Of a DNA stretch of 64,000 nt, positions 5,372 to 22,642 are shown one piece after another; position 1 is the first letter of the stretch, and every line of letters starts with the position of its first letter. This stretch comes from Candidatus Spongiihabitans thiooxidans (GTDB lineage: Bacteria > Pseudomonadota > Gammaproteobacteria > Arenicellales > Poriferihabitantaceae), in assembly GCA_001543005.1 (NCBI GenBank), contig LFLB01000022.1, forward strand, positions 62,001 to 126,000, read 5' to 3'. The translations under genes and the position numbers were made by a program. The notes below the pieces were generated by a model. That model saw only the letters and a program-made list of their open reading frames with translations, was not told where the DNA came from and did not search any database.

Positions 5372-5983
5372 TTAAAAGAAAAGTCTAATTGCCAATCCAA
5401 CAAAAATAATGCACAACAAATATTTTTGATACCTTAAATACTTATCATTTTTTAACAACGAATTTCCTATTGAGCCACTAAACAAACCGTATAGTGAGTT
5501 TATAGTCGTCCCGATTACTGTCAGCAATAGGCCGAGAAAAATTATTTGGTAACTGGTATTCCCCAATTCTTCATTGACAAATTGCGGAATGAACGCCATA
5601 AAAAATATAAGGGCTTTTGGGTTCAGAATATTAACCAATATTCCTCGTAACAATAATTCTTTTTTTGTTGTCGTGTTTTCCAATGAGTACGCGCTGACGG
5701 ACGACCTCCATATCCGATAGGCGAGCCACAATAAATAACACGCGCCAGCGTACTGTATAAGCAACAACGATCCGGGGAATAGCGCCACCAAAGCAGAAAC
5801 GCCAAAAGCGGATATCAAGGTCAGCATTAACCCGCCGATACCGACACCCAATGCGGAATACAGCCCACCCTTTTTCCCATAACTGATACCATTGGAAACT
5901 ACATAAACCATATCAGGCCCGGGAGTAATCATCAAAACAACGACTGCCGCCACATAAACATAAAGAGATTGAGCATCAAACAT
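5372..5983 (-). CDS. LysE/RhtB-family amino-acid exporter
   Basis: 203 residues with six hydrophobic segments. Family marks are 'MITPGPDMVYVVSNGISYG' near residues 18-36, 'LLWLAYRIW' near 84-92 and 'ILNPKALIFFMAFIPQFV' near 118-135. It sits in the inner membrane and exports amino acids or homoserine-type metabolites in known members. It is convergent with the AsnC gene, which probably regulates it by analogy with Lrp/LysE pairs. The region upstream (5984-6333) is shared with the divergent unknown gene. Confidence 0.9.
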   Translation of the reverse strand: MFDAQSLYVYVAAVVVLMITPGPDMVYVVSNGISYGKKGGLYSALGVGIGGLMLTLISAFGVSALVALFPGSLLLIQYAGACYLLWLAYRIWRSSVSAYSLENTTTKKELLLRGILVNILNPKALIFFMAFIPQFVNEELGNTSYQIIFLGLLLTVIGTTINSLYGLFSGSIGNSLLKNDKYLRYQKYLLCIIFVGLAIRLFF

Positions 5984-6333
5984 CAGGATGTTCCTAATTC
6001 ACATACAACTTTACCTTTCCGCATTTTAAGGATGCTCTTTAATCTATATTTTTGTGAATTTTCCAGTTGATGTACATCTGATTACAACAGTCCAAATGTG
6101 CAATCATGTTAAAATATTGTCCAAATCGGGCTGGACAAGAGGATTTTCCGCTGGATGCCGACCCTGACCAGAAAATTTGATAGGAAAAAGAATGCGAAGT
6201 GGTGATAGCGACAACCGTTTTCCACCAGCAATTCGGAATGACAATAACGATCAACCATAATACGATTGGCATCCCGCTGGGTTCGAAACTGCACCCTTGA
6301 AAAAAGTTTATTATGCAAAGTCTCCGAACAAAA
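5984..6333. other. Divergent intergenic region
   Basis: Promoter space for the LysE gene (minus) and the unknown gene (plus). I see no riboswitch, tRNA or clear operator. A GTTCGAA sequence at 6281-6287 resembles a T-loop but has no matching tRNA arms. Confidence 0.5.
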
Positions 6334-7257
6334 ATGACCATCAAGGAAAATACTCAGATCGAAAACGGCACCATCAGCAAAACCGATGGTGTGGAGCATA
6401 TTTTTTACGATAATTACTGGATTCGGTATTACCCGCCCCCGGAAGAAACCCTCGCCGAAAAAAAGAAACTGTTGGACGCCCTGACCCGTCGCACCTTTCA
6501 TCATACCGAACCCGGCATTAACACGCCTGGGGAAAAGCTGGATGAAGTTCGAGCGGCGTATGAAACCGAAAGTGACCCTGGTCGAAAGCGGGTCAATGCC
6601 GCCATGCTGGCCGGCGCGCTGTTCAATCGCGCCACGGATATATTCACGGCCATTGTTGACCTGGAGGAAAGCGGCATCAAAATCACCAAAGACGATGATT
6701 TCATGCTGCAATGCTCAAGCTGTTTCTCGGAAGCCCTGTCGTTGTCCGGCAATGTAAAACATCATAGCGGCGAAGAAGGTGTGGATGAACTTTGGGGCGA
6801 GCCGGTGAAAGTGTTTACCATGTCGATCGCCGAGTACTACTGTAGCCGCTACCGCAAAATCGCCCAAGCCATGCGCGAAATTGACCGAGTCGGGGAGACC
6901 ATTCAAACCACGCTTTGTTGCCTGCAATGGTTCTCCCAAGCAAAGCCCTTGGTGGAAGATTTCATCGGCATCGCCAAATACGAATGTGAAATCCTTCGCA
7001 GCGATCCGAACTATTTGGCGATATGGCCGGAATTTATCGCTGACGGTGAAAAAATCCTCGACTTTCGCGCCACTATTCCCGAAAATACAAACAATAAGTT
7101 GGAAAGACATATCAAACGCGGCACAATCTTGTTGCGCTCGGGAAAAGATTTAATGACCTGGATTGCAAATGTGCGCGTGCCGATGCCGGTGAGCACGACG
7201 CATTATCTGGAAACATGCGCCGAGTACCGCCAATCCACCGAAAAAATCGCTTACTGA
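6334..7257 (+). CDS. Unknown conserved-looking protein, mostly helical
   Basis: About 307 residues from ATG 6334 (an in-frame ATG at 6313 would add seven). I do not recognise the family. The start 'EHIFYDNYWIRYYPPPEE' is compact and aromatic and is conserved in the relic at 4783, which supports real coding. The rest looks alpha-helical, with Cys-containing stretches ('FMLQCSSCFSEAL', 'TTLCCLQWFSQA') but no signal peptide or membrane helix. GC content and codon use match the gcv genes that follow. It lies 41 bases upstream of the gcvT start used here (7299), so it may be transcribed with the glycine-cleavage genes. Confidence 0.7.
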   Translation: MTIKENTQIENGTISKTDGVEHIFYDNYWIRYYPPPEETLAEKKKLLDALTRRTFHHTEPGINTPGEKLDEVRAAYETESDPGRKRVNAAMLAGALFNRATDIFTAIVDLEESGIKITKDDDFMLQCSSCFSEALSLSGNVKHHSGEEGVDELWGEPVKVFTMSIAEYYCSRYRKIAQAMREIDRVGETIQTTLCCLQWFSQAKPLVEDFIGIAKYECEILRSDPNYLAIWPEFIADGEKILDFRATIPENTNNKLERHIKRGTILLRSGKDLMTWIANVRVPMPVSTTHYLETCAEYRQSTEKIAY

Positions 7258-8929: not shown

Positions 8930-11788
8930 ATGCCTAGAGCCGATGATTTTACCACCCGCCATATTGGTTCCAGTCCTGAACATATTGCGCGTATGCTTAA
9001 AGTCCTGGACCTGGATTCCCTGGATCATCTTATTGAGCAAACTATTCCAGCATCAATCCAGAGCAAAAAAGAATTTTCCCTGCCACGTTCGCTGGATGAA
9101 AATCAACTTAATAAATTGAGCCGCCTGATTGCGGCGGATAACACCGCGGCGATCTCCATGATCGGGCTAGGCTATTATGGTACGGTAACGCCGCCGGTGA
9201 TTCGTCGCAATGTCATGGAAAACCCGGATTGGTATACCGCTTACACCCCTTACCAACCGGAAGTCAGCCAGGCACGGCTGGAAATCCTGATCACTTTTCA
9301 GCAAATGATTATGGATTTAACGGCTATGGAACTTGCCAATGCGTCATTGCTCGACGAGGCCACCGCCGCCGCAGAAGCCATGTTGGTCGCCCGCCGCATG
9401 ACGAAAAGCAAAACCAACCGATTTTTAGTTGACCAGGATTGCTTGCCGCAAACCATTGCGGTTGTGAAAACCCGCGCCGAGCCGTTAGGAATTGAAGTTG
9501 TGGTCGGCGATAGCGAGCGCGAGATTGAAAACGGCGAGTATTTTGCCGGGTTGCTGCAATACCCCGGCGCGTCGGGACAAGTGCGGGAATACCGCGAAAC
9601 AATCGATAAACTGAAATCCCAGGCTGCTTTGGTAATCATGGCCGCGGATCCGTTGGCGCTGACCCTGCTCAAACCGCCCGGTGAAATGGGGGTCGATATT
9701 GCCGTAGGTAGCACGCAAAGATTCGGCGTGCCCATGGGATTTGGCGGGCCGCATGCCGCCTACATGGCAACCCATGAAAAATACAAACGCGCACTGCCCG
9801 GAAGATTGATCGGTGCCACCATTGATGTCAATGGCAATCCGGCATACCGCATGGCATTGCAAACCCGGGAACAACACATACGCCGCGACAAAGCGACCAG
9901 TAATATTTGCACTTCCCAGGTTTTGCTGGCAATCATGGCAACGGTTTACGCCATGTATCACGGCCCCGAAGGCCTGACCCGCATCGCTAGCGGGGTCAAC
10001 CGATTGGCCCGCGCCTTGGCACAGGAACTAAAAAGCCTGGGTTTTGAGATCGTCCACGATCAATTTTTCGACACCCTGCTTATCCGCGCAGTGGGTCAAG
10101 CGAAAAGAATTCAGGATAAAGCCGAACAGGCTGGATATAACTTGCGGCTGGTGGACGACGATCATTTAGGCATCAGCCTGGACGAAACCATCTCCCGGGA
10201 AAAAGTCGTTGGGCTACTGGAAGTATTTGCCGGCACCACCGCACAACAAGTTAGCGGCTCATTATTTGACATTGATTTGAATCAATCCATTCCAGAGAAT
10301 CTAAAACGCTCAAGCGATTTCCTGACCCACCCGATTTTCCATCGCTATCGCTCTGAAACGGAATTTATGCGCTACCTCAGAAAAACCGCCAGCAAGGATA
10401 TTACCCTGGCGCGCGCCATGATTCCGCTTGGTTCATGCACCATGAAGCTCAACGCCGCCAGCGAAATGGAGCCCATTTCAAATCCATTATTCGCGCACAT
10501 CCATCCCTTCGCCCCGGCCAAGCACACCAAAGGCTATCATCGAATAATCAATCGACTGGATTCGATGTTGTGCGAAATCACCGGCTTTGATGGCTTCACC
10601 TTCCAGCCCAACGCCGGCTCCCAAGGCGAATACACCGGTCTATTATGCATCCGCGCCTTTCATCACTCCCAAGGCAGAACACAACGCAACGTCTGCCTGA
10701 TCCCGTCCTCGGCGCACGGCACCAATCCGGCCAGCGCGGTCATGGCCGGGATGAAAGTGGTGGTGGTCAAGTGCGACCACCACGGCAATATCGATATCAA
10801 CGATTTCAAGGAAAAAGCCGAATTGCACGCCGATTGCTTAGCCGCCACGATGGTGACCTATCCCTCCACCCACGGCGTTTTTGAGGAGTCCATCAAGGAA
10901 ATTTGCGACCTCGTCCATGCCAATGGCGGCCAGGTTTATATGGATGGCGCCAACATGAATGCCATGGTGGGCATTTGTCGGCCGGCCGAGATCGGCGCCG
11001 ATGTCATGCACCTTAACCTGCATAAAACCTTCGCTATTCCGCATGGCGGCGGCGGCCCCGGCATGGGTCCGATTGGCATGAAGAAGCACTTGCTACCGTT
11101 TCTTCCCGACCATCCGGTGGTCCGGTGCAACCGCGGCGGCTCAAGCCCGTTGGGCACGGTATCCGCGGCGCCGTGGGGCTCGCCATTGATTCTGCCCATC
11201 TCCTGGGCCTATATGCGGCTGCTCGGCAAGCATGGATTAAAGCGCTCAACCCAGGTCGCTATTCTTAATGCCAATTACATCGCCCATCGCCTGGACCCGC
11301 ATTACCCGGTCGTGTATAAAGGCAAGAACGGGCGGGTTGCTCACGAATGTGTCATCAATCTGGCGCTGATCAAGGAAAGTTGCGGAGTGACCGTCGAGGA
11401 TGTCGCAAAGCGATTGATCGACTACGGTTTTCATGCGCCCACCATGTCTTGGCCGGTGCCTGATTCGCTCATGATCGAACCGACCGAGAGCGAGTCCCTG
11501 GAAGAGATCGACCGATTCTGCGACGCCCTGATTTCGATTCGAGCCGAGATTCGGGAAATCGAGCAGGGCAAGGCAACCCTGGAAAACAGCCTGTTGACCA
11601 ATGCGCCACATAGCTATCATCTGCTGGTCAAAGACGACTGGAATGCGCCCTATTCCCGCGAGCGCGCATTCTTTCCCACCGAAGCCACCCGAAATAATAA
11701 ATTCTGGCCGCCCGTGGGGCGGATCGACAATGTCTATGGCGATAAAAATCTTGTATGCAGTTGCCCGCCGATGTCGGATTATGCCTAA
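8930..11788 (+). CDS. gcvP: Glycine dehydrogenase (decarboxylating), single-chain P protein
   Basis: 952 residues, the fused form with both halves in one chain. The start 'TTRHIGSSPEHIARMLKVL' is typical. The N-half has 'MIGLGYYGTVTPPVI' and 'RPxx'-type contacts; the C-half carries the PLP lysine K699 in 'LNLHKTFAIPHGGGGPGMG'. It decarboxylates glycine and loads the residual aminomethyl group onto lipoyl-GcvH. GC-rich codon use matches gcvT and gcvH. The ancestral order was probably gcvP-lipA, since a truncated lipA start begins 83 bases after its stop. Confidence 0.96.
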   Translation: MPRADDFTTRHIGSSPEHIARMLKVLDLDSLDHLIEQTIPASIQSKKEFSLPRSLDENQLNKLSRLIAADNTAAISMIGLGYYGTVTPPVIRRNVMENPDWYTAYTPYQPEVSQARLEILITFQQMIMDLTAMELANASLLDEATAAAEAMLVARRMTKSKTNRFLVDQDCLPQTIAVVKTRAEPLGIEVVVGDSEREIENGEYFAGLLQYPGASGQVREYRETIDKLKSQAALVIMAADPLALTLLKPPGEMGVDIAVGSTQRFGVPMGFGGPHAAYMATHEKYKRALPGRLIGATIDVNGNPAYRMALQTREQHIRRDKATSNICTSQVLLAIMATVYAMYHGPEGLTRIASGVNRLARALAQELKSLGFEIVHDQFFDTLLIRAVGQAKRIQDKAEQAGYNLRLVDDDHLGISLDETISREKVVGLLEVFAGTTAQQVSGSLFDIDLNQSIPENLKRSSDFLTHPIFHRYRSETEFMRYLRKTASKDITLARAMIPLGSCTMKLNAASEMEPISNPLFAHIHPFAPAKHTKGYHRIINRLDSMLCEITGFDGFTFQPNAGSQGEYTGLLCIRAFHHSQGRTQRNVCLIPSSAHGTNPASAVMAGMKVVVVKCDHHGNIDINDFKEKAELHADCLAATMVTYPSTHGVFEESIKEICDLVHANGGQVYMDGANMNAMVGICRPAEIGADVMHLNLHKTFAIPHGGGGPGMGPIGMKKHLLPFLPDHPVVRCNRGGSSPLGTVSAAPWGSPLILPISWAYMRLLGKHGLKRSTQVAILNANYIAHRLDPHYPVVYKGKNGRVAHECVINLALIKESCGVTVEDVAKRLIDYGFHAPTMSWPVPDSLMIEPTESESLEEIDRFCDALISIRAEIREIEQGKATLENSLLTNAPHSYHLLVKDDWNAPYSRERAFFPTEATRNNKFWPPVGRIDNVYGDKNLVCSCPPMSDYA

Positions 11789-11870
11789 GGCTTGTACCTG
11801 AGGCTTATACCTGAAATTTAGGTCTAAACATTTTTGTCAAACAACGCGAAAGCACAAAATTAGGGCAAAT

Positions 11871-12068
11871 CATGCAACCCGCCGCCGATAAATTAAATAA
11901 AGTAATTCAGGGCGAAAAACTTTGCGGCAAGGAAAAGATGGCGCGAATTCCGGTCAGGATTGCGCCCCTGCCGCGCGCTCAGCTGCTCAGAAAACCGAAA
12001 TGGATTCGCGCCAGTTTCATCGGCACCGCGGCGGTCTCGGAACTCAAGAAAGTGTTGCGGTCAAAAGG
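11871..12068 (+). repeat. 198-bp lipA direct repeat, left copy
   Basis: Paired with 16919-17116 at a spacing of 5048 bases. Homology begins exactly at the base before the ATG and ends at GTCAAAAGG. About 97% identity by eye (six mismatches), mostly transitions, so the duplication is not brand new or came from a related strain. Confidence 0.92.
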
Positions 12069-12096
12069 CGGCGAAAAACAAGTTAAATACCGTTAA
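11872..12096 (+). pseudogene. lipA: Truncated copy of the lipoyl synthase 5' end
   Basis: Bases 11871-12068 match the start of the intact lipA (16919-17116) with about six differences in 198 bases. The reading frame then runs nine more codons into unrelated sequence and stops. Only the N-terminal extension of LipA is encoded ('[17 protein letters not shown]' to '[10 protein letters not shown]'), with none of the radical-SAM cysteines, so it cannot be active. It keeps the native position behind gcvP. This pattern (stump with native upstream, intact gene with foreign upstream) is what single-crossover integration of a molecule carrying a lipA 5' fragment would leave. Confidence 0.9.
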
Positions 12097-12547
12097 CAAA
12101 TCCCGGGTTTCCAATCAGATATAAATGTTTGAGAATAAAATCCGACCATTTGAATGGCGTAGCCTTCAATCAGAGGTTCCTTAAGTCAATAAAGCGTCTA
12201 AACATTGAATCCCTGGCAATTTGTTTTTCTAATGCTTCATCGCTCATCTTATACTAAGCTTGCAGGATTAGAATCTTAAACATCATTAGTGGCGGGTAAG
12301 CCGACCTCTTTTAGATGAGTATAGATCGGACAGGGTGGTTTCTATCTCTTTCCAGTTAATGATGCTGTGTCATCGTCAAGTTCGCTCAGGCATTTATGCT
12401 CGACCACAAGCAAGTCTGCAATTGAGTGTTGGGCGGTTTGTTTTCAGGACATTTTGAGTTAGTTTGGGCGGTTGTTTTAGAGGTTTTTCATTTCACCAGA
12501 TTTGGTATGATTTAGGCTTGATTTATGCAAAGGTCTCGGAGAATATT
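12069..12547. other. Left junction and leader of the inserted cassette
   Basis: No gene recognised. The AT-rich sequence begins directly after the lipA stump. Near the right end (12496-12536) is a 41-bp IS-end-like sequence whose inverted copy lies at 20383-20422. The promoter of the N-hydroxylase operon must lie here or in the IS end. Confidence 0.5.
12496..12536 (+). mobile_element. IS terminal-sequence relic
   Basis: The sequence around ATTTGGTATGATTTAGG and ATTTATGCAAAGGTCT matches the inverted complement of 20383-20422 with one gap and a few mismatches. ACCTTTGCA-type ends are common in IS5-like elements, but no transposase is present, so the family is a guess. It lies just upstream of the N-hydroxylase start and may carry its promoter. 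Confidence 0.5.
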
Positions 12548-13852
12548 TTGAGAAATTATAGTTCCGTTGGAATTGGTTTTGGCCCAGCAAATATAGCAGT
12601 GGCTATAGCATTAAATGGGGCATCTTATAAATCCTATAATCGCCACATTTTCTTCGACTCTCGGGAAGAGCCGTCATGGCATCCGGGTCTTTTATTTGAT
12701 GTGTCAACAATGCAGATTTCTTTTCTAAAAGACTTAGTTACAATGGTGAATCCAACCTCGGAATTTACGTTTCTTAATTATCTAAAAGAACGAGGTAGGA
12801 TGCATGAGTTTATCAATTTACGAACATTCTATCCTCGCCGTACAGAGTTTGACGATTATCTGAGATGGGCTAGCGATAAGTTATCAAACTTTTCTAGATT
12901 TAATCATGAGATAACGGAGATAAATTTAGAAGATGACAATAACGTTGAATACACTAGCTTGATTGTTACAGTTAAAGATAAAAAATCTGGCCGTGAAGAA
13001 AATGTCATAACAGACAACATTATTGTTTCTGATGGGGGTATTCCGAAATGGCCATTTGATATAGATCAAACTACAACTAACAGGATTTTCCACGGGTCAG
13101 AGACGTTAGGAAAGTTAGAAAAATACGATCTAAACCGAGAAGAAGATTATATTTTTCATGTTGTTGGGTCGGGTCAATCGTCAGCAGATATTATAAACTA
13201 TCTTGGAGACCAATATCCAAATAGTAAAATAATATTAACTCATCGCTCATTTTCCATGAGACCAGAAGACGATAGCCATTTTGTGAATGAACTATTCATG
13301 CCCGATGCGGTTAGTATGTTTCAGGAAATGTCGCAAGACGCCCGTGATAGTGTCATAAAAGACTACTGGCATGTGACACACAGTGGCGTAACCCTTGATT
13401 TGTTGCCTAAGCTGTATGAGAAGGTCTATTATGACAGGGCAAGTGGTAGGAATAGATATAGTTTCAATAGATTTTCGGAGATCATAGCCGGTTATGAGGT
13501 TGATAATCGCACCTTTATAAAGGTTAGGAACATTCACACTGGTGATGTAGAGGAAATTGGGGCGGATTTTACTATCCTTGCTACAGGATACCAGCGGCCA
13601 TGTCCGCACCCGCTATTGAAGTCTTTTGACCATATCTTGGAAAAAATAGAAGACCAAACTGCATATGAAATTGATCACAATTACAGAGTGAAAACGAAAG
13701 CCAAAACCAATTTTAGCATTTATATGCAGGGGTATGCAGAAAGAACTCATGGGTTTTCAGAGACACTCCTTTCATTAATGCCAGAAAGAGCCGCTAGAAT
13801 TGCTGCGGAATTGGCAGTCACAGATAATCAATACAGAAAGTTAGCTGTGTGA
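12548..13852 (+). CDS. L-lysine/L-ornithine N-hydroxylase-family flavin monooxygenase
   Basis: About 434 residues from a TTG at 12548, chosen because GGAG lies six bases upstream and because the flavin site starts right after it; the open frame extends back to 12464 but that part is leader and IS relic. FAD site: 'SVGIGFGPANIAVAIAL'. Then 'FDSREEPSWHPGLLFD' and 'MQISFLKDLVTMVNPTSEF', both strong marks of the SidA/PvdA/IucD group. NADPH site: 'HVVGSGQSSADI'. Further family mark: 'PEDDSHFVNELFMPD'. Such enzymes add oxygen to the side-chain amine of lysine or ornithine (or related diamines) using FAD, NADPH and O2. No siderophore synthetase is nearby, so the product probably feeds the next gene. 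Its stop overlaps the next start (TGATG). AT-rich compared with gcvP and lipA. Confidence 0.85.
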   Translation: MRNYSSVGIGFGPANIAVAIALNGASYKSYNRHIFFDSREEPSWHPGLLFDVSTMQISFLKDLVTMVNPTSEFTFLNYLKERGRMHEFINLRTFYPRRTEFDDYLRWASDKLSNFSRFNHEITEINLEDDNNVEYTSLIVTVKDKKSGREENVITDNIIVSDGGIPKWPFDIDQTTTNRIFHGSETLGKLEKYDLNREEDYIFHVVGSGQSSADIINYLGDQYPNSKIILTHRSFSMRPEDDSHFVNELFMPDAVSMFQEMSQDARDSVIKDYWHVTHSGVTLDLLPKLYEKVYYDRASGRNRYSFNRFSEIIAGYEVDNRTFIKVRNIHTGDVEEIGADFTILATGYQRPCPHPLLKSFDHILEKIEDQTAYEIDHNYRVKTKAKTNFSIYMQGYAERTHGFSETLLSLMPERAARIAAELAVTDNQYRKLAV

Positions 13853-15411
13853 TGGATGCCAGTACTTCAAATGATATTTCACTTAAGGAAAGTTTCGAAA
13901 GAATACTGGAATGTCAAATATCTGATGCAGCTATTATATTCACATTCCCTGGAATTAGCATAGGTAAAAAATACTGTGAATTAAGTGGCTGTACGTTTGA
14001 ATCAGAGGGGTACGAGCGACTTGCTAATAAATTTATGGGGTTAGGAATAGATGTGATAGGCGTCTCTACAGGGGAAGTTCCTAAAAAAGCACAGTATGTA
14101 AATTATTACCAGTTATCAGAACCGCAAGCACCTTTCCGTTCCGTTCTGGTTGAGGGAAGGGAGTTCCTCGCCCGTGATACGTATTTTATAATCGGAGATA
14201 ATATCTCAGTAGTAGAGGTGGATGATGTAGAAAAACATCTGCTCGTAGCCGAGAAGTGGGTAGGTAGGCAGCTACAGAAGTTACTAAGATTAACAATAGA
14301 AGATACCAAGATAATTGATTTAGAGAAAAATATAGAGTTATCAGAACGCTTAAAAAGTGGCGCAGATTCATTAGCTATATTAAAATTTGAAACTGATCCA
14401 AAATCAGTTCTAAAGATCGGCGTTTCTAGGATAATTGACCTAGAGATAGATTTTATCTCCAACGTAAGTGGGATTGGAGTAAAAGCATTTCCTGCTATCT
14501 ACTCCAGTGGTAAATTATCTGATGGAAATAGCTGGTATTTGATGGAAGGGGCAAATCCACATAAAGGTGTGGAATATGAGCTCTTTCGTTCATTAGAGCA
14601 TGGAATATTGACAGATGACTGGCGGAACAAGCTTTGCGATATAATAAGTCCATTCAAAACTATATATAAGGACAGTATAGTTAAACATAGTTGCCGTATC
14701 GCCCAATATCACTATGTTGATAGAGTTAAATCTATAATAAAGAGAAAAGACTTTATCGACATCTATGATAAGCTTTATATATCACATTTACCGTGTGATG
14801 AGTTTCTGAACCAAGAAATAATCCTAAATGACAGTAACCTTGGCAAATTCTATGGGGCTGTTAATCATGTTTCAGCAATTCATGAAAAAAATAATTCTAC
14901 TTATTCATGTATGGTACACGGTGATTTACATCTGAAGAATATCCTATATGCTAATAAAGGTGGCCGATATGTATTTATTGATCCACGTCTGCAATGGGAT
15001 GATCAACCGATAGATAAATTTGGATACAGTGACCCAGTTTATGATATGGCGACTATGTTGCATAGTATTAGTAGTATGTCATTTATTTTGGAGCGTATTA
15101 ATACAAGAAAAACGAAAGAAATTGTTAAATATGAAGTACAAAAAGGGTTTATAAAAGTAGAATTGTCCGATGATCTATTTAATAATTTAACGACAGCAGA
15201 TGGTGGGATTGTCGACGTTTGTAAAAATATTTTTCCTAGAGAAATATTAGAAGGGCATTGGGAAAGCAGGCTATATGCTGGTGCATCTAATGCTTTGTTT
15301 GGTTGGTTAAAATATATAAATGCTATTAGAACTAAAGAAGCATGGATTAGTATTTACGCGATATCTGCCCATTATGCATCAAAATCAATAAAGTGTATGG
15401 CAGATGGGTGA
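13852..15411 (+). CDS. Fusion protein: peroxiredoxin-like domain + APH/choline-kinase-like phosphotransferase
   Basis: 519 residues from ATG 13852 (a GTG at 13849 is possible). Residues 25-130 look like a peroxiredoxin/BCP-type thioredoxin fold: 'AAIIFTFPGIS', a Cys in 'ELSGCTFESEG' at the peroxidatic position, then 'LGIDVIGVSTGEVP'. Residues 160-480 look like a protein-kinase-fold small-molecule kinase: a lysine in 'SVLKIGVS' (about 189), the catalytic 'VHGDLHLKNIL' (about 356-366) and metal-binding Asp in 'VFIDPR' (about 378). I know no characterised protein with this pairing. Translational coupling on both sides (TGATG upstream, 8-base overlap downstream) ties it to the N-hydroxylase and the MFS exporter. 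Possible roles are phosphorylating the hydroxylamine product or a self-resistance step. The peroxiredoxin call is weaker than the kinase call. Confidence 0.7.
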   Translation: MDASTSNDISLKESFERILECQISDAAIIFTFPGISIGKKYCELSGCTFESEGYERLANKFMGLGIDVIGVSTGEVPKKAQYVNYYQLSEPQAPFRSVLVEGREFLARDTYFIIGDNISVVEVDDVEKHLLVAEKWVGRQLQKLLRLTIEDTKIIDLEKNIELSERLKSGADSLAILKFETDPKSVLKIGVSRIIDLEIDFISNVSGIGVKAFPAIYSSGKLSDGNSWYLMEGANPHKGVEYELFRSLEHGILTDDWRNKLCDIISPFKTIYKDSIVKHSCRIAQYHYVDRVKSIIKRKDFIDIYDKLYISHLPCDEFLNQEIILNDSNLGKFYGAVNHVSAIHEKNNSTYSCMVHGDLHLKNILYANKGGRYVFIDPRLQWDDQPIDKFGYSDPVYDMATMLHSISSMSFILERINTRKTKEIVKYEVQKGFIKVELSDDLFNNLTTADGGIVDVCKNIFPREILEGHWESRLYAGASNALFGWLKYINAIRTKEAWISIYAISAHYASKSIKCMADG

Positions 15412-16606
15412 AGTAAGGCATCTTATTTTAGGGTTTTATGCATTTCGTCTGTTTAGATATAGTTATTTCCATGTAGCAATAGGATTGATCTATTTTCAGA
15501 GCGTTGGCTTGACGTTGAGCCAAGCACTAAGCTTGGAGAGTGTGTATTATGTATCTAAAGCAATTTTTGATATTCCGGGGGGGTATTTCGCGGATAGAGT
15601 AGGAAGAAAACCAAGTCTAATTATTAGCGGCTTACTGTGCGCGCTAGCCTATGTGATTATAGGGACAAACGAAACATATTTAGTATTTACATGTGCTGAG
15701 ATATTATTAGGATTAGCTATGAGCATGGCAATTACATCGGACTCGGCGCTCCTATTTGATGAATTAAAAGAACTTAATGCGGAGGACCAATACCAGAAGG
15801 TAGAAGGTAGAGGATGGGCATTACGTAACTTTGGTTTTGGGGCGGCATCAGCAATGGGAGCATGGATTGCTGCACAGACCACCCTTGGGATACCATTTCT
15901 GATAAGTGCTGGCGTCATTTTGATTGCGAGCATTATTGCTATATTCTACATAAAAGAACCCAATTTCAAGCCAACATCAAGTGGAAAATTATGGTATAAA
16001 AATGTGATGGTGGTTCTAAAGAAACCATCGTTTATTCCCATCGTCCTATTTTTTGCTGTAATGTTTATAGCTGTTAGGATAGGATTTTGGGCATTTCAGC
16101 CTGTGATGGAAGGGATCGGCGTAGATTTGGTGTGGTTTGGCGTGTTATTTGGAATAACATTGTCGGTGTCATTGTTTTCAGCGATTAATATTGATTGGGT
16201 TAGTAAAACGTATATGGCTCCGTGGGGAGCGATAACGGTTATGCTTAGTTTCTGCTTTTTTGTTATTGTTGCTGGCTTGTCTATGTCGAGGCAGTTCGTA
16301 CTAGTTGTAGTAATGATGGGGTTCTGCATCCATGCAGTTGGGCAGGGAATTTATGATCCTATCATGAGAGAAGAGATCAATAGCCTATCAAGTGGTTCTG
16401 TGAGAGCAACGATGATGTCTGTTGCAATTATGCTTGGAAATTTAGGATTTGCGGCTTTTGCCCCGATTTATGGATATTGTCTAGAAAATTATGGTCACTT
16501 CCAAACGCTCATATCGGTGGGTGTGGTAATATTGGTTTTTGGGTTGTCTTTATCTGGCTGGATAAGAACGTCACAGAGGCGGGAAAGTATAATAAAGGAA
16601 GCATGA
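15404..16606 (+). CDS. MFS transporter (probable exporter of the cassette product)
   Basis: 400 residues with about 12 hydrophobic segments. The loop between helices 2 and 3 has the MFS motif A as 'GGYFADRVGRKPSLIIS' (about 59-75). The middle loop ('KEPNFKPTSSGKLWYKN') divides the two six-helix halves. It starts inside the end of the fusion gene, so all three are one operon. MFS members with this layout commonly export small molecules; direction and substrate are inferred. AT-rich like its two partners. Confidence 0.85.
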   Translation: MGEVRHLILGFYAFRLFRYSYFHVAIGLIYFQSVGLTLSQALSLESVYYVSKAIFDIPGGYFADRVGRKPSLIISGLLCALAYVIIGTNETYLVFTCAEILLGLAMSMAITSDSALLFDELKELNAEDQYQKVEGRGWALRNFGFGAASAMGAWIAAQTTLGIPFLISAGVILIASIIAIFYIKEPNFKPTSSGKLWYKNVMVVLKKPSFIPIVLFFAVMFIAVRIGFWAFQPVMEGIGVDLVWFGVLFGITLSVSLFSAINIDWVSKTYMAPWGAITVMLSFCFFVIVAGLSMSRQFVLVVVMMGFCIHAVGQGIYDPIMREEINSLSSGSVRATMMSVAIMLGNLGFAAFAPIYGYCLENYGHFQTLISVGVVILVFGLSLSGWIRTSQRRESIIKEA

Positions 16607-16918
16607 ACTAAATCATTCATACACATAATTTCTAACGAGTAAATTCGCATAATAAACGCACCACTTGGTTTAACCGCAAAGGTCCCCTTTATTAGTGGCA
16701 GTTTGGTTGTTGTTACAACTTGATTTTTAGTTATCATGGTAGCAGACCCGTTGTCGTTGGCCCTGCTCAAGCCTCGCTGGTAAAAATGACCGGTTGAAAA
16801 TGAAAGCAATTTACATGTATGAACAATATAAACAGGATAATCGTTATGAAAAGAGAATCAACAAAACAAAAATTAAAAAATCTTGTCTCTCCTGTCGATC
16901 CATATAATGGAAGAAAAC
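16607..16918. other. Right junction of the cassette, with gcvP relic
   Basis: No full gene. It contains a short degraded gcvP piece (16731-16774) and a 32-codon ORF (16846-16944) that runs into the lipA start. No terminator was recognised after the MFS gene. This stretch supplies whatever promoter drives the intact lipA. Confidence 0.5.
16731..16774 (+). pseudogene. gcvP: Short relic of gcvP
   Basis: The bases encode 'VIMVADPLSLALLKP', matching gcvP residues 235 onward ('VIMAADPLALTLLKP'). By eye 35 of 44 bases agree. The relic lies about 145 bases upstream of the intact lipA, in the same relative order as gcvP and lipA. It suggests that the incoming DNA carried a diverged gcvP-lipA segment, or that the locus rearranged more than once. 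Confidence 0.6.
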
Positions 16919-16944
16919 CATGCAACCCGCCGCCGATAAATTAA
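16846..16944 (+). CDS. Short ORF fused into the lipA start
   Basis: 32 codons starting '[19 protein letters not shown]', then 'YNGRKPC', continuing out of frame into the first bases of lipA. The first 24 codons are hydrophilic and lysine-rich. It could be the cut-off beginning of a gene from the inserted DNA, or chance. No family recognised. Confidence 0.25.
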
Positions 16945-17116
16945 ATAAAATAATTCAGGGCGAAAAACTTCGCGGCAAGGAAAAGATGGCGCGAATTCCG
17001 GTCAGGATTGCGCCCCTGCCGCGCGCTCAGCTACTCAGAAAGCCGAAATGGATTCGCGCCAGTTTCACCGGTACCGCGGCGGTCTCGGAACTCAAGAAAG
17101 TGTTGCGGTCAAAAGG
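16919..17116 (+). repeat. 198-bp lipA direct repeat, right copy
   Basis: Partner of 11871-12068. Here the homology continues into a complete lipA gene, so this copy marks the right edge of the inserted cassette. Confidence 0.92.
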
Positions 17117-17888
17117 ATTGCATACCGTTTGCGAGGAGGCGGCCTGCCCTAATCTCGGCGAATGTTTCGGCAACGGCACGGCGACATTTTTAATTATGGG
17201 CGATATTTGCACCCGGCGATGCCCGTTTTGCGATGTGGCACACGGGCGACCCAATCCCCTGGATGTGGATGAACCACGCAATCTCGCCGAAACCGTGGCC
17301 GCGATGGGCCTGAACTATGTGGTCATCACTTCCGTGGACCGCGATGATTTGCGCGATGGCGGCGCAACCCATTTTGTAGCGTGTATCCGCGCGATTCGAT
17401 CTCGGTGCCCAAATACGAAAATTGAGATTCTCACGCCGGATTTTCGCGGAAGAATAGACGTTGCCGTGGAGATTCTGGAAAAATCCCCGGCCGATGTGTT
17501 CAATCATAATCTGGAGACGGTTGCACGATTGTATAAACAGGCGCGACCGGGTGCCGACTATCAATATTCGCTCGACCTGCTTTTACGCATGAAGCGAAAC
17601 CAGCCTGCGCTGCCGACAAAATCCGGCATCATGCTGGGGCTCGGCGAAACCCGAGAGGAAGTGATCGAGGTGATGACGGATTTGCGCCGACATGAGGTGG
17701 AAATGCTCACCTTGGGACAGTACTTGCAACCCAGCCGCCATCATTTACCCGTGCAACGATATTGGCACCCGGACGAATTTGCGGAATTGGGCGAGATTGG
17801 AGAGGCACTGGGATTCGCCAATGTTGCGTCCGGGGCGATGGTCAGATCGTCCTATCACGCCGATTTGCAGGCGCATATGGACGCATGA
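16920..17888 (+). CDS. lipA: Lipoyl synthase
   Basis: 322 residues, full length. The auxiliary cluster cysteines are in '[12 protein letters not shown]' and the radical-SAM cluster in '[13 protein letters not shown]'. '[19 protein letters not shown]' and '[13 protein letters not shown]' are standard. It inserts two sulfurs into octanoyl groups on GcvH and 2-oxoacid dehydrogenases, so it completes the glycine cleavage system upstream. GC content matches gcvP, unlike the cassette between them. Its native upstream region now sits 5 kb away with the stump at 11872, so expression may have changed. Confidence 0.97.
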
Positions 17889-20757: not shown

Positions 20758-22023
20758 ATGTGTCCAGCAGAAAATTTTGAATCATCCAATAGTTCACGCA
20801 CAGTGCTTGAAAGATGCTTGCAGTTATCAAAAATTACTGATGAAGAACAGCGTTTAACCCGCACGTATTTCACCCAAGCACATAGTGACTGTAACAATCT
20901 TGTTGACGAATGGATGAAGCAAGCGGGGATGCAGGTTCAACATGATGATATGGGTAATATTATCGGCAGTTATTCTACTCATGGGAAAAACGAAAACCCT
21001 CCTGTACTCATTATTGGCTCTCATTTGGACACCGTTGTTGATGCTGGGAAATTCGACGGCATTTTGGGCGTTCTTGTCGCTATAGAATCTATATCGAACC
21101 TCCATCAAAATAAAATGCGCTTGCCTATTTCGATAAAAGTTATTGGTTATGCGAATGAGGAAGGTGTCAGGTTCCCGTGTGCGAGGACTGGATCGAAAGC
21201 AATCGCAGGAGTTCTAAACAACAGAGAGTTAACTGTGTCAGACAAAAATAACGTAACGTTTCAAGATGCACAATATCAATTTATTAATCGGTCTAGCCAC
21301 CCAATAGTACCGGTGGAAGTATTAAATCAGAATTTAGTTGGCTGTCTAGAGATTCATATTGAGCAAGGTCCTGTTTTATCAAGTTCCGATATTCCAGTTG
21401 GCATAGTTACATCTATTCAGGGAGCCGATCGCTATACAGTAAAAATTCTCGGAACTGCGGGTCATGCGGGAACAGTGCCAGTATCATCTAGAAAAGATGC
21501 AATGAGATATGCATCAAAATTAATTGATGCTCTATATGAGTTGAGCATTAAAAACGATTTTATGCTCACGATAGGCGTTGTAGATATCAAGCCAGGGGCT
21601 ACTGGCACCATCCCAGGGGAAGTGGTGTTCACTATTGATGCAAGATCTGAAGATGATATAAAAAGAAGAAAACAAATTAACCAGTGCGTATCCAATTTTA
21701 GCGAATGTCTAAGCAAGCACGGATTAAAGATGCAATTTTTAAATACTTATTCATCTGATACGAAAAAGTGCTCAAAAGAATTGAATTCTGTTTTAGACGA
21801 ATTTATAAGAGAATGCGGAATAACTCCTTTTTATTTAAAGAGTGGTGCTGGTCATGATGTGCTTTCATTTTATGATATTGTGCCAATATCTATGTTGTTT
21901 GTTAGTTGTAAAGATGGCGTTAGTCATATTCCAGAGGAATACGTTTTTATTCAAGATGTTGACTTAGCGACAAAAATTTTAACTGAAGTAATAATCAAAA
22001 TGAGATCAGCAAATGAGTTTTGA
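20758..22023 (+). CDS. M20-family Zn hydrolase, N-carbamoyl-L-amino-acid hydrolase / allantoate amidohydrolase type
   Basis: 421 residues. Metal-site motifs: 'LIIGSHLDTVVDAGKFDG' (about 83-100), 'GYANEEGVRFPCARTGS' (about 128-144), 'LEIHIEQGPVL' (about 197-207) and 'KSGAGHDVLSF' (about 361-371). The lid domain has 'TVKILGTAGHAGTVPV'. The family removes a carbamoyl or ureido group, giving a free amino acid or ureidoglycine. The stop region overlaps the following LysE-type gene by 11 bases, so hydrolysis and export are coupled. AT-rich, unlike the Aap genes. Substrate not determinable; the hydantoin-utilising role is the family default. Confidence 0.85.
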   Translation: MCPAENFESSNSSRTVLERCLQLSKITDEEQRLTRTYFTQAHSDCNNLVDEWMKQAGMQVQHDDMGNIIGSYSTHGKNENPPVLIIGSHLDTVVDAGKFDGILGVLVAIESISNLHQNKMRLPISIKVIGYANEEGVRFPCARTGSKAIAGVLNNRELTVSDKNNVTFQDAQYQFINRSSHPIVPVEVLNQNLVGCLEIHIEQGPVLSSSDIPVGIVTSIQGADRYTVKILGTAGHAGTVPVSSRKDAMRYASKLIDALYELSIKNDFMLTIGVVDIKPGATGTIPGEVVFTIDARSEDDIKRRKQINQCVSNFSECLSKHGLKMQFLNTYSSDTKKCSKELNSVLDEFIRECGITPFYLKSGAGHDVLSFYDIVPISMLFVSCKDGVSHIPEEYVFIQDVDLATKILTEVIIKMRSANEF

Positions 22024-22642
22024 AGCGTTAAGTTTATATGTAATTTCGATTTTTGTTGTGATTATGATTCCGGGACCATTGTCTTTGTTCATGGTTTCCA
22101 ATTCCGTGAATTATGGAATTTTAAAATCGTATCCCGCTTTCCTTGGTGGCACCGTCGCGTCAACATTATACTTGGTGATTTCCGCCGCCGGACTTGGTGC
22201 ATTAGTTGTCGCTGCGGATAATTTATTTGCGCTGTTGAAAATATTGGGTGCAATCTATCTGGTCTATCTTGGGTATGTAACAATAAAAGAATCAATGAAA
22301 GGGAAAGCGACAGATTTTGCCAATGCAGAATTGCGCGAAGCCCCTGACTTTGGGAGGTTGTTTAAAAAAGCGTTTCTGCTGGGCGCAAGCAATCCGAAAG
22401 ATATTATATTCTTTATGGCTTTTTTGCCGCAATTTATCTCCACTGATGGAAACTTGAAACAGCAAATTTTTATCATTGTCATTACCTGGATTGTTGTTGA
22501 CCTGTTATGCAAAATCCTTTATGGACTTTTGGCGAAACCCATCAGACCATTTCTGGATACGAGAAAGAACATCTCAAGGTTTGAGAAGTCGATCGGAGTT
22601 CTATACATCATGGCTGGTGGAATAGCCGCCGTGGTGGCTTGA
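22013..22642 (+). CDS. LysE/RhtB-family exporter
   Basis: 209 residues, six hydrophobic helices, with 'MIPGPLSLFMVSNSVNYG' near the start and 'LGASNPKDIIFFMAFLPQF' in the middle, the two conserved family regions. It begins inside the end of the M20 hydrolase gene, so both come from one mRNA. Inference: it exports the amino acid made by the hydrolase, or protects against an N-modified analogue. It differs clearly from the LysE gene at 5372. Confidence 0.9.
   Translation: MSFEALSLYVISIFVVIMIPGPLSLFMVSNSVNYGILKSYPAFLGGTVASTLYLVISAAGLGALVVAADNLFALLKILGAIYLVYLGYVTIKESMKGKATDFANAELREAPDFGRLFKKAFLLGASNPKDIIFFMAFLPQFISTDGNLKQQIFIIVITWIVVDLLCKILYGLLAKPIRPFLDTRKNISRFEKSIGVLYIMAGGIAAVVA

What the first reader, a model, noticed from the sequence alone, without database searches (positions are those of the whole stretch)
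12548..16606. Compact operon: amino-acid N-hydroxylase, peroxiredoxin-like/kinase fusion, MFS exporter
Three translationally coupled, AT-rich genes encode an oxidase for side-chain amines, a two-domain protein with a thioredoxin-fold front and a choline-kinase-like back, and an exporter. There is no siderophore synthetase, NRPS or acetyltransferase. That is not a siderophore pathway I know. A small N-oxygenated metabolite, possibly phosphorylated, is the simplest reading.
Basis: partly seen in the sequence, partly recalled or inferred. Interest (0 to 1): 0.88.

Follow-up and report, generated by a model that had tools for sequence, protein, structure and literature searches.

The report
Orphan N-hydroxylase, peroxiredoxin-kinase, exporter operon
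A small, horizontally acquired three-gene operon pairs an enzyme that puts oxygen on an amino-acid nitrogen with a kinase fused to a peroxiredoxin-like domain and an exporter; the same pairing recurs in a few unrelated bacteria, which points to an undescribed family of small nitrogen-oxygen metabolites whose product has not been seen.

Summary
Three overlapping, AT-rich genes lie at 12548-16606: a SidA/PvdA-type flavin N-monooxygenase (NMO), a peroxiredoxin-like domain fused to an APH/choline-kinase-fold kinase with intact catalytic motifs, and an MFS exporter. They form a 5-kb insertion between gcvP and lipA, bounded by a 202-bp lipA direct repeat; 18 relatives have gcvP and lipA side by side. 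The gene set is not unique. A Roseibium MAG and a contig binned as Mariprofundaceae carry peroxiredoxin, NMO, kinase and MFS. Two Agrobacterium plasmids carry NMO, kinase, ATP-grasp ligase, peroxiredoxin, epimerase and MFS. Two Vibrio plasmids carry the same peroxiredoxin-kinase fusion beside an iron oxidase and an ATP-grasp protein. The five NMOs form their own clade (support 100/100). They keep three of the four ornithine contacts known from SidA, but replace the invariant Asn-Tyr with Thr-His. I found no NIS synthetase in the genome and no Fur box in the leader. The best reading is a small exported N-oxygenated amino-acid metabolite that the kinase phosphorylates, with the peroxiredoxin domain handling peroxide or N-O redox chemistry. 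Product, kinase target and peroxiredoxin role are inferred. I found no description of the set in the papers searched.

The parts
11867..12068 (+). Left copy of the direct repeat: first 197 bases of lipA plus 5 bases before it, still attached to gcvP
   Evidence: the repeat finder D1, 195 of 202 bases identical to 16915-17116; tblastn shows 63 of 66 residues of LipA
12069..12547 (.). Leader of the operon, non-coding; no Rfam match, no Fur box
   Evidence: best Fur-box match 12 of 19
12548..13852 (+). SidA/PvdA-type flavin N-monooxygenase, 434 aa, TTG start
   Evidence: PF13434 E=2.3e-91; closest solved relatives PvdA, MbtG, KtzI, SidA; own clade 100/100
13849..15411 (+). Peroxiredoxin-like domain (about residues 1-160) fused to APH/choline-kinase-fold kinase (about residues 165-520)
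   Evidence: full-length match to the Vibrio protein, E=4e-32; Prx profile comparison E=3.8e-5; kinase motifs VLKIG, HGDLHLKN, DPRLQWDD with catalytic residues invariant; fold match
15404..16606 (+). MFS exporter, 400 aa
   Evidence: PF07690 E=5.9e-23; 55-57% identical to the MFS next to the kinase in L012 and L013
16726..16784 (+). Short remnant resembling internal gcvP DNA (9628-9686), between the operon and lipA
   Evidence: 38 of 48 bases; LVIMVADPLSLALLKP
16915..17116 (+). Right copy of the direct repeat: start of the intact lipA (16920-17888)

Best explanation
The operon is a horizontally acquired, minimal biosynthetic cassette for a small exported N-oxygenated amino-acid derivative. Proposed steps: (1) the NMO, with FAD, NADPH and O2, hydroxylates an amine of an L-alpha-amino acid or a close derivative that is not ordinary ornithine; (2) the APH-fold kinase transfers a phosphate from ATP to the product, most simply to its new N-OH group; (3) the fused peroxiredoxin-like domain, with one conserved Cys, removes peroxide leaking from the oxidase or manages the redox state of the N-O intermediate; (4) the MFS protein exports the product. 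Shown: the genes, their coupling, the conserved catalytic motifs, the separate NMO clade with an altered pocket, and recurrence of the oxidase + Prx + kinase + MFS set in unrelated bacteria. Inferred: substrate, site of phosphorylation, role of the Prx domain, direction of transport. Confidence is for one shared pathway that makes an exported N-oxygenated metabolite which the kinase phosphorylates, stably or transiently; the chance that phosphate lands on N-OH itself I put near 0.3.
For: NMO-kinase adjacency with overlapping or touching frames in the window, L013, L002 and L003; in the Roseibium MAG Prx and NMO end one contig and kinase and MFS begin another. A standalone Prx lies next to the NMO in L013 and L016 and in the Agrobacterium operons, while window and Vibrio carry it fused to the kinase: a fusion signature of shared function. 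GCT with the conserved Cys is invariant in all six Prx sequences. The NMO keeps K61, N247 and S409, equal to SidA K107, N293 and S469, while the N323-Y324 positions are T277-H278 in all five clade members against N-Y in all 31 others; these four SidA residues bind ornithine (PMC8009421; PMC7347517). None of 28 siderophore-type NMO loci has this kinase or MFS within 1.5 kb. Kinase catalytic Lys, HGD..H..N and D are invariant.
Against: No product, substrate or activity is known. The Prx domain lacks the canonical PxxxTxxC motif, so it may not be a peroxidase. Agrobacterium and Vibrio loci have an extra ATP-grasp protein that the window, Roseibium and Mariprofundaceae loci lack nearby, so the products may differ or the window cassette may be incomplete. 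MFS genes of Agrobacterium and Vibrio are not orthologous to the window's. Kinase, Prx and MFS could be self-protection rather than biosynthesis.
Confidence: 0.6

Rival explanations
1. Self-resistance: the NMO makes a toxic N-oxygenated amino-acid analogue; the APH-type kinase inactivates it inside the cell, the Prx domain and MFS protect and export. Phosphate is then not part of the final active product.
For: The kinase-domain model matches APH resistance enzymes best, and APH-fold kinases are known self-resistance genes in aminoglycoside and tuberactinomycin clusters (general knowledge). MFS next door.
Against: The kinase overlaps the NMO directly and is the constant element across loci with different oxidases and different MFS proteins, which fits a pathway enzyme at least as well.
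Confidence: 0.2
2. Remnant or variant of a hydroxamate siderophore pathway, with the ligase elsewhere in the genome.
For: The NMO family is best known from siderophores; PvdA is the closest solved relative.
Against: No IucA/IucC in the genome, no acyltransferase in the operon, no Fur box, separate NMO clade without the substrate Asn, no kinase near siderophore-type NMOs. NRPS genes elsewhere in the genome were not searched.
Confidence: 0.05
3. O-phosphorylation turns the hydroxylamine into an electrophilic nitrogen, so that the cassette forms an N-N bond or a strained ring (a kinase-driven counterpart of heme-dependent piperazate synthase), and phosphate leaves.
For: NMO followed by nothing but a kinase and a redox domain leaves few other uses for ATP; NMO products are known precursors of N-N bonds (PMC7347517).
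Against: No direct evidence; pure chemical inference.
Confidence: 0.12

Closest known systems
Ornithine/lysine N-hydroxylases PvdA, SidA, KtzI, MbtG
   Same: Same family and cofactor motifs; three of four substrate contacts kept
   Different: Asn323-Tyr324 replaced by Thr-His in every clade member; no siderophore ligase nearby; coupled to a kinase
Aminoglycoside phosphotransferase / choline kinase fold
   Same: Catalytic Lys, HGDxHxxN and Asp; fold match probability 1.00
   Different: About 10% identity to solved members; fused to a peroxiredoxin-like domain in window and Vibrio
BCP/DOT5-type peroxiredoxins
   Same: Profile of the Prx set matches DOT5 E=2e-11; GCT motif with Cys
   Different: PxxxTxxC motif not kept; fused to a kinase; the window domain alone is a weak match
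Agrobacterium pAt loci (NZ_CP132056, NZ_CP123840)
   Same: NMO 54-55% and kinase 37-40% identical, adjacent and in the same order; a peroxiredoxin and an MFS gene in the operon
   Different: Extra ATP-grasp ligase and dipeptide epimerase; unrelated MFS; no described product found
Guanitoxin pathway (from memory; not examined here)
   Same: N-hydroxylation followed by phosphorylation of an amino-acid-derived nitrogen compound, as recalled
   Different: Different gene set as recalled; a resemblance only, not a test

Membership tests
SidA/IucD/PvdA flavin N-monooxygenases | Family profile PF13434 | tested here: met
   306.9 bits, cut-off 21.3
Ornithine N5-hydroxylases (SidA/PvdA/KtzI function) | Four ornithine contacts K107, N293, N323, S469 (SidA numbering) | tested here: not met
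   K61, N247, S409 kept; N323 is T277 and the next Tyr is H278 in all five clade members. Fits family membership but not ornithine-hydroxylase function
SidA/IucD/PvdA flavin N-monooxygenases | NADPH-dependent amine hydroxylation | not testable with these tools
   needs enzyme assay
APH/choline-kinase-like kinases | Catalytic motifs (Lys, HGDxHxxN, DFG-equivalent Asp) | tested here: met
   invariant in alignments A2 and A9
APH/choline-kinase-like kinases | Pfam APH cut-off reached | tested here: inconclusive
   window 21.5 against 23.2; relatives 29.5 and 27.9
APH/choline-kinase-like kinases | Fold | tested here: met
   model pTM 0.72, APH(4)-Ia E=9.7e-4, probability 1.00, though TM-scores stay at 0.39-0.45
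Peroxiredoxins | Homology to peroxiredoxins | tested here: met
   profile comparison E=3.8e-5, probability 71%; joint profile to DOT5 E=2e-11
Peroxiredoxins | PxxxTxxC active-site motif | tested here: not met
   KKYCELSGCT: Cys48 kept, Thr and Pro positions are Leu and Lys
Hydroxamate siderophore pathway | NIS synthetase, NRPS or N-acyltransferase with the NMO | tested here: not met
   none in the operon; no IucA/IucC in the genome; NRPS genome-wide not tested
Hydroxamate siderophore pathway | Fur control | tested here: not met
   best box 12 of 19 in the leader

The most novel reading that the evidence does not exclude
A family of tiny biosynthetic cassettes in which a kinase phosphorylates an enzymatically made N-hydroxyl group, either as a stable N-O-phosphate natural product or as a leaving group for N-N or ring formation, with a peroxiredoxin-like domain as a dedicated partner; flavin or diiron oxidases are interchangeable in front of the same kinase.
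Probability: 0.25. Interest if true: 0.85.

Novelty: new variant of a known kind. Interest (0 to 1): 0.6.

Why it matters
Flavin N-hydroxylases feed siderophores and many known N-N and N-O natural products, so a separate clade with a changed substrate pocket, found in every locus seen with the same kinase and a peroxiredoxin, points to unseen chemistry. The cassette is only three genes and 4 kb, so the whole pathway can be expressed and tested in a laboratory host, and homologous loci on sequenced Agrobacterium plasmids offer a route to a genetic test. The apparent exchange of a flavin oxidase for an iron oxidase beside the same kinase fusion would show which part of such pathways is constant.

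Tried and rejected
Siderophore operon: rejected. Anti-phage system: no PADLOC match. Riboswitch or RNA control in the region: none. Phage-borne cassette: no relative in viral contigs. First active-site comparison was faulty: some references were read on the wrong strand and the column was off by one; redone, so the Asn position is Thr277, and His278 replaces the next residue, Tyr. In L013 the NMO is cut at its 5' end, so its K107 position cannot be judged (the 'R' is a misalignment). Degenerate peroxiredoxin in the Roseibium-type kinase N-terminus: tested by profile comparison, not supported. Full-length structure model: low confidence (pLDDT 52), its fold matches not significant; only the kinase-domain model is used. 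Literature: eight searches for the gene set or its chemistry gave nothing relevant; subscription journals are mostly not held.

Full report
What is there. Three ORFs run in one direction at 12548-16606: an N-monooxygenase (NMO, TTG start with GGAGA upstream, 434 aa), a 520-aa two-domain protein whose start overlaps the NMO stop, and a 400-aa MFS protein whose start overlaps the kinase stop. Pfam puts the first in Lys_Orn_oxgnase (306.9 bits) and the third in MFS_1; the middle protein matches APH just under its cut-off and AhpC/TSA weakly. GC is 0.35-0.41 against 0.54-0.55 in gcvP and lipA.

How it got there. A 202-bp direct repeat (195 of 202 identical) at 11867-12068 and 16915-17116 is the start of lipA. 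In 18 relatives gcvP is followed at once by lipA, so the window carries an insertion of about 5 kb that left a truncated lipA start beside gcvP and an intact lipA on the far side. A short gcvP-like remnant precedes the intact lipA. No transposase or integrase was seen among the ORFs of the inserted stretch. The arrangement fits recombination through a lipA fragment carried by the incoming DNA, which is inference. The kinase is absent from the other 108 genomes searched in the order.

The same set elsewhere. tblastn on plasmids gave two Agrobacterium and two Vibrio records. The Agrobacterium operons read NMO, kinase, ATP-grasp, peroxiredoxin, DgcA-like epimerase, MFS. The genome scan gave a Roseibium MAG and a contig binned as Mariprofundaceae. 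The latter reads peroxiredoxin, NMO, kinase, MFS, with broken frames in NMO and kinase; its MFS is 81% identical to that of Roseibium, so the bin may be wrong. In Roseibium the kinase and MFS start one contig and peroxiredoxin plus NMO end another. The Vibrio plasmids have MFS, a Haem_oxygenas_2 iron oxidase, the peroxiredoxin-kinase fusion (23% identity over 504 residues, E=4e-32, same architecture) and an ATP-grasp protein. The set is rare: besides the window's own genome, one clear relative in 398 genomes of the phylum, none in 369 of the class, and only the Roseibium MAG itself in 397 genomes of its order. The collection scan used strict peptide patterns, so these are lower bounds.

The NMO. 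Its closest solved relatives are PvdA, MbtG, KtzI and SidA. A tree with 28 NMOs from the phylum and three solved enzymes puts the five NMOs of this set in one clade, support 100/100 on a long branch. SidA binds ornithine through K107, N293, N323 and S469 (PMC8009421), and Asn323 also touches the nicotinamide ribose (PMC7347517). The clade keeps the Lys (where readable), Asn and Ser but has Thr-His in place of Asn323-Tyr324, and His in place of Pro three residues before N293; all 31 others keep Asn-Tyr. The substrate is therefore probably still an alpha-amino acid, but not plain ornithine. None of the 28 reference NMOs has this kinase or MFS within 1.5 kb.

The middle protein. The kinase half has VLKIG, HGDLHLKN and DPRLQWDD, with the catalytic residues invariant in relatives; relatives pass the APH cut-off; the domain model (pLDDT 68, pTM 0.72) matches APH(4)-Ia at probability 1.00, E=9.7e-4, with modest TM-scores. 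The front half is related to the standalone peroxiredoxins of the sister operons (E=3.8e-5, probability 71%), and P34, G47, C48 and T49 are invariant. The canonical PxxxTxxC motif is not kept, so I call it peroxiredoxin-like. The Roseibium-type kinases have a different N-terminal stretch without detectable relation but a standalone peroxiredoxin upstream of the NMO.

What it does. The constant elements are an O2-activating oxidase, this kinase and, in window, Roseibium, Mariprofundaceae, Agrobacterium and Vibrio loci alike, a peroxiredoxin, with an MFS exporter. Fused in two lineages and separate in three, peroxiredoxin and kinase behave as pathway partners. The simplest pathway is N-hydroxylation, phosphorylation, export. 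No NIS synthetase is in the genome, no clear orthologue of the Agrobacterium ATP-grasp protein (best 30% to part of a 441-aa frame), no standalone peroxiredoxin of this type, and no Fur box in the leader. Whether phosphate is part of the product, a leaving group, or a self-protection mark cannot be decided from sequence.

Known or new. Each protein belongs to a known superfamily. The combination was not found in the papers searched, though subscription journals are mostly not held. I rate it a new variant of a known kind: an NMO-based small-molecule cassette with an unfamiliar kinase and peroxiredoxin partner.

Noticed in passing
11867-12068 and 16915-17116: 202-bp lipA direct repeat (97%) flanking the insertion; 18 relatives have gcvP-lipA adjacent.
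   Followed up: yes
16726-16784: Short degenerate gcvP-like remnant between the operon and the intact lipA, possibly carried in by the donor DNA.
   Followed up: partly
L004:4921-12741: Vibrio coralliilyticus plasmid p319: VioC/GntD-like dioxygenase, aminotransferase, MFS, iron oxidase, peroxiredoxin-kinase and ATP-grasp in one neighbourhood; looks like a larger amino-acid-derived pathway.
   Followed up: partly
6313-7257: 314-aa ORF without any Pfam match in an AT-rich stretch upstream of gcvT.
   Followed up: no
L013:673-3077: NMO 5' end cut and a TAA inside the kinase; contig probably alphaproteobacterial although binned as Mariprofundaceae.
   Followed up: partly
5372-5983 and 22013-22642: Two LysE-type amino-acid exporters within 10 kb on either side of the operon region.
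   Followed up: no
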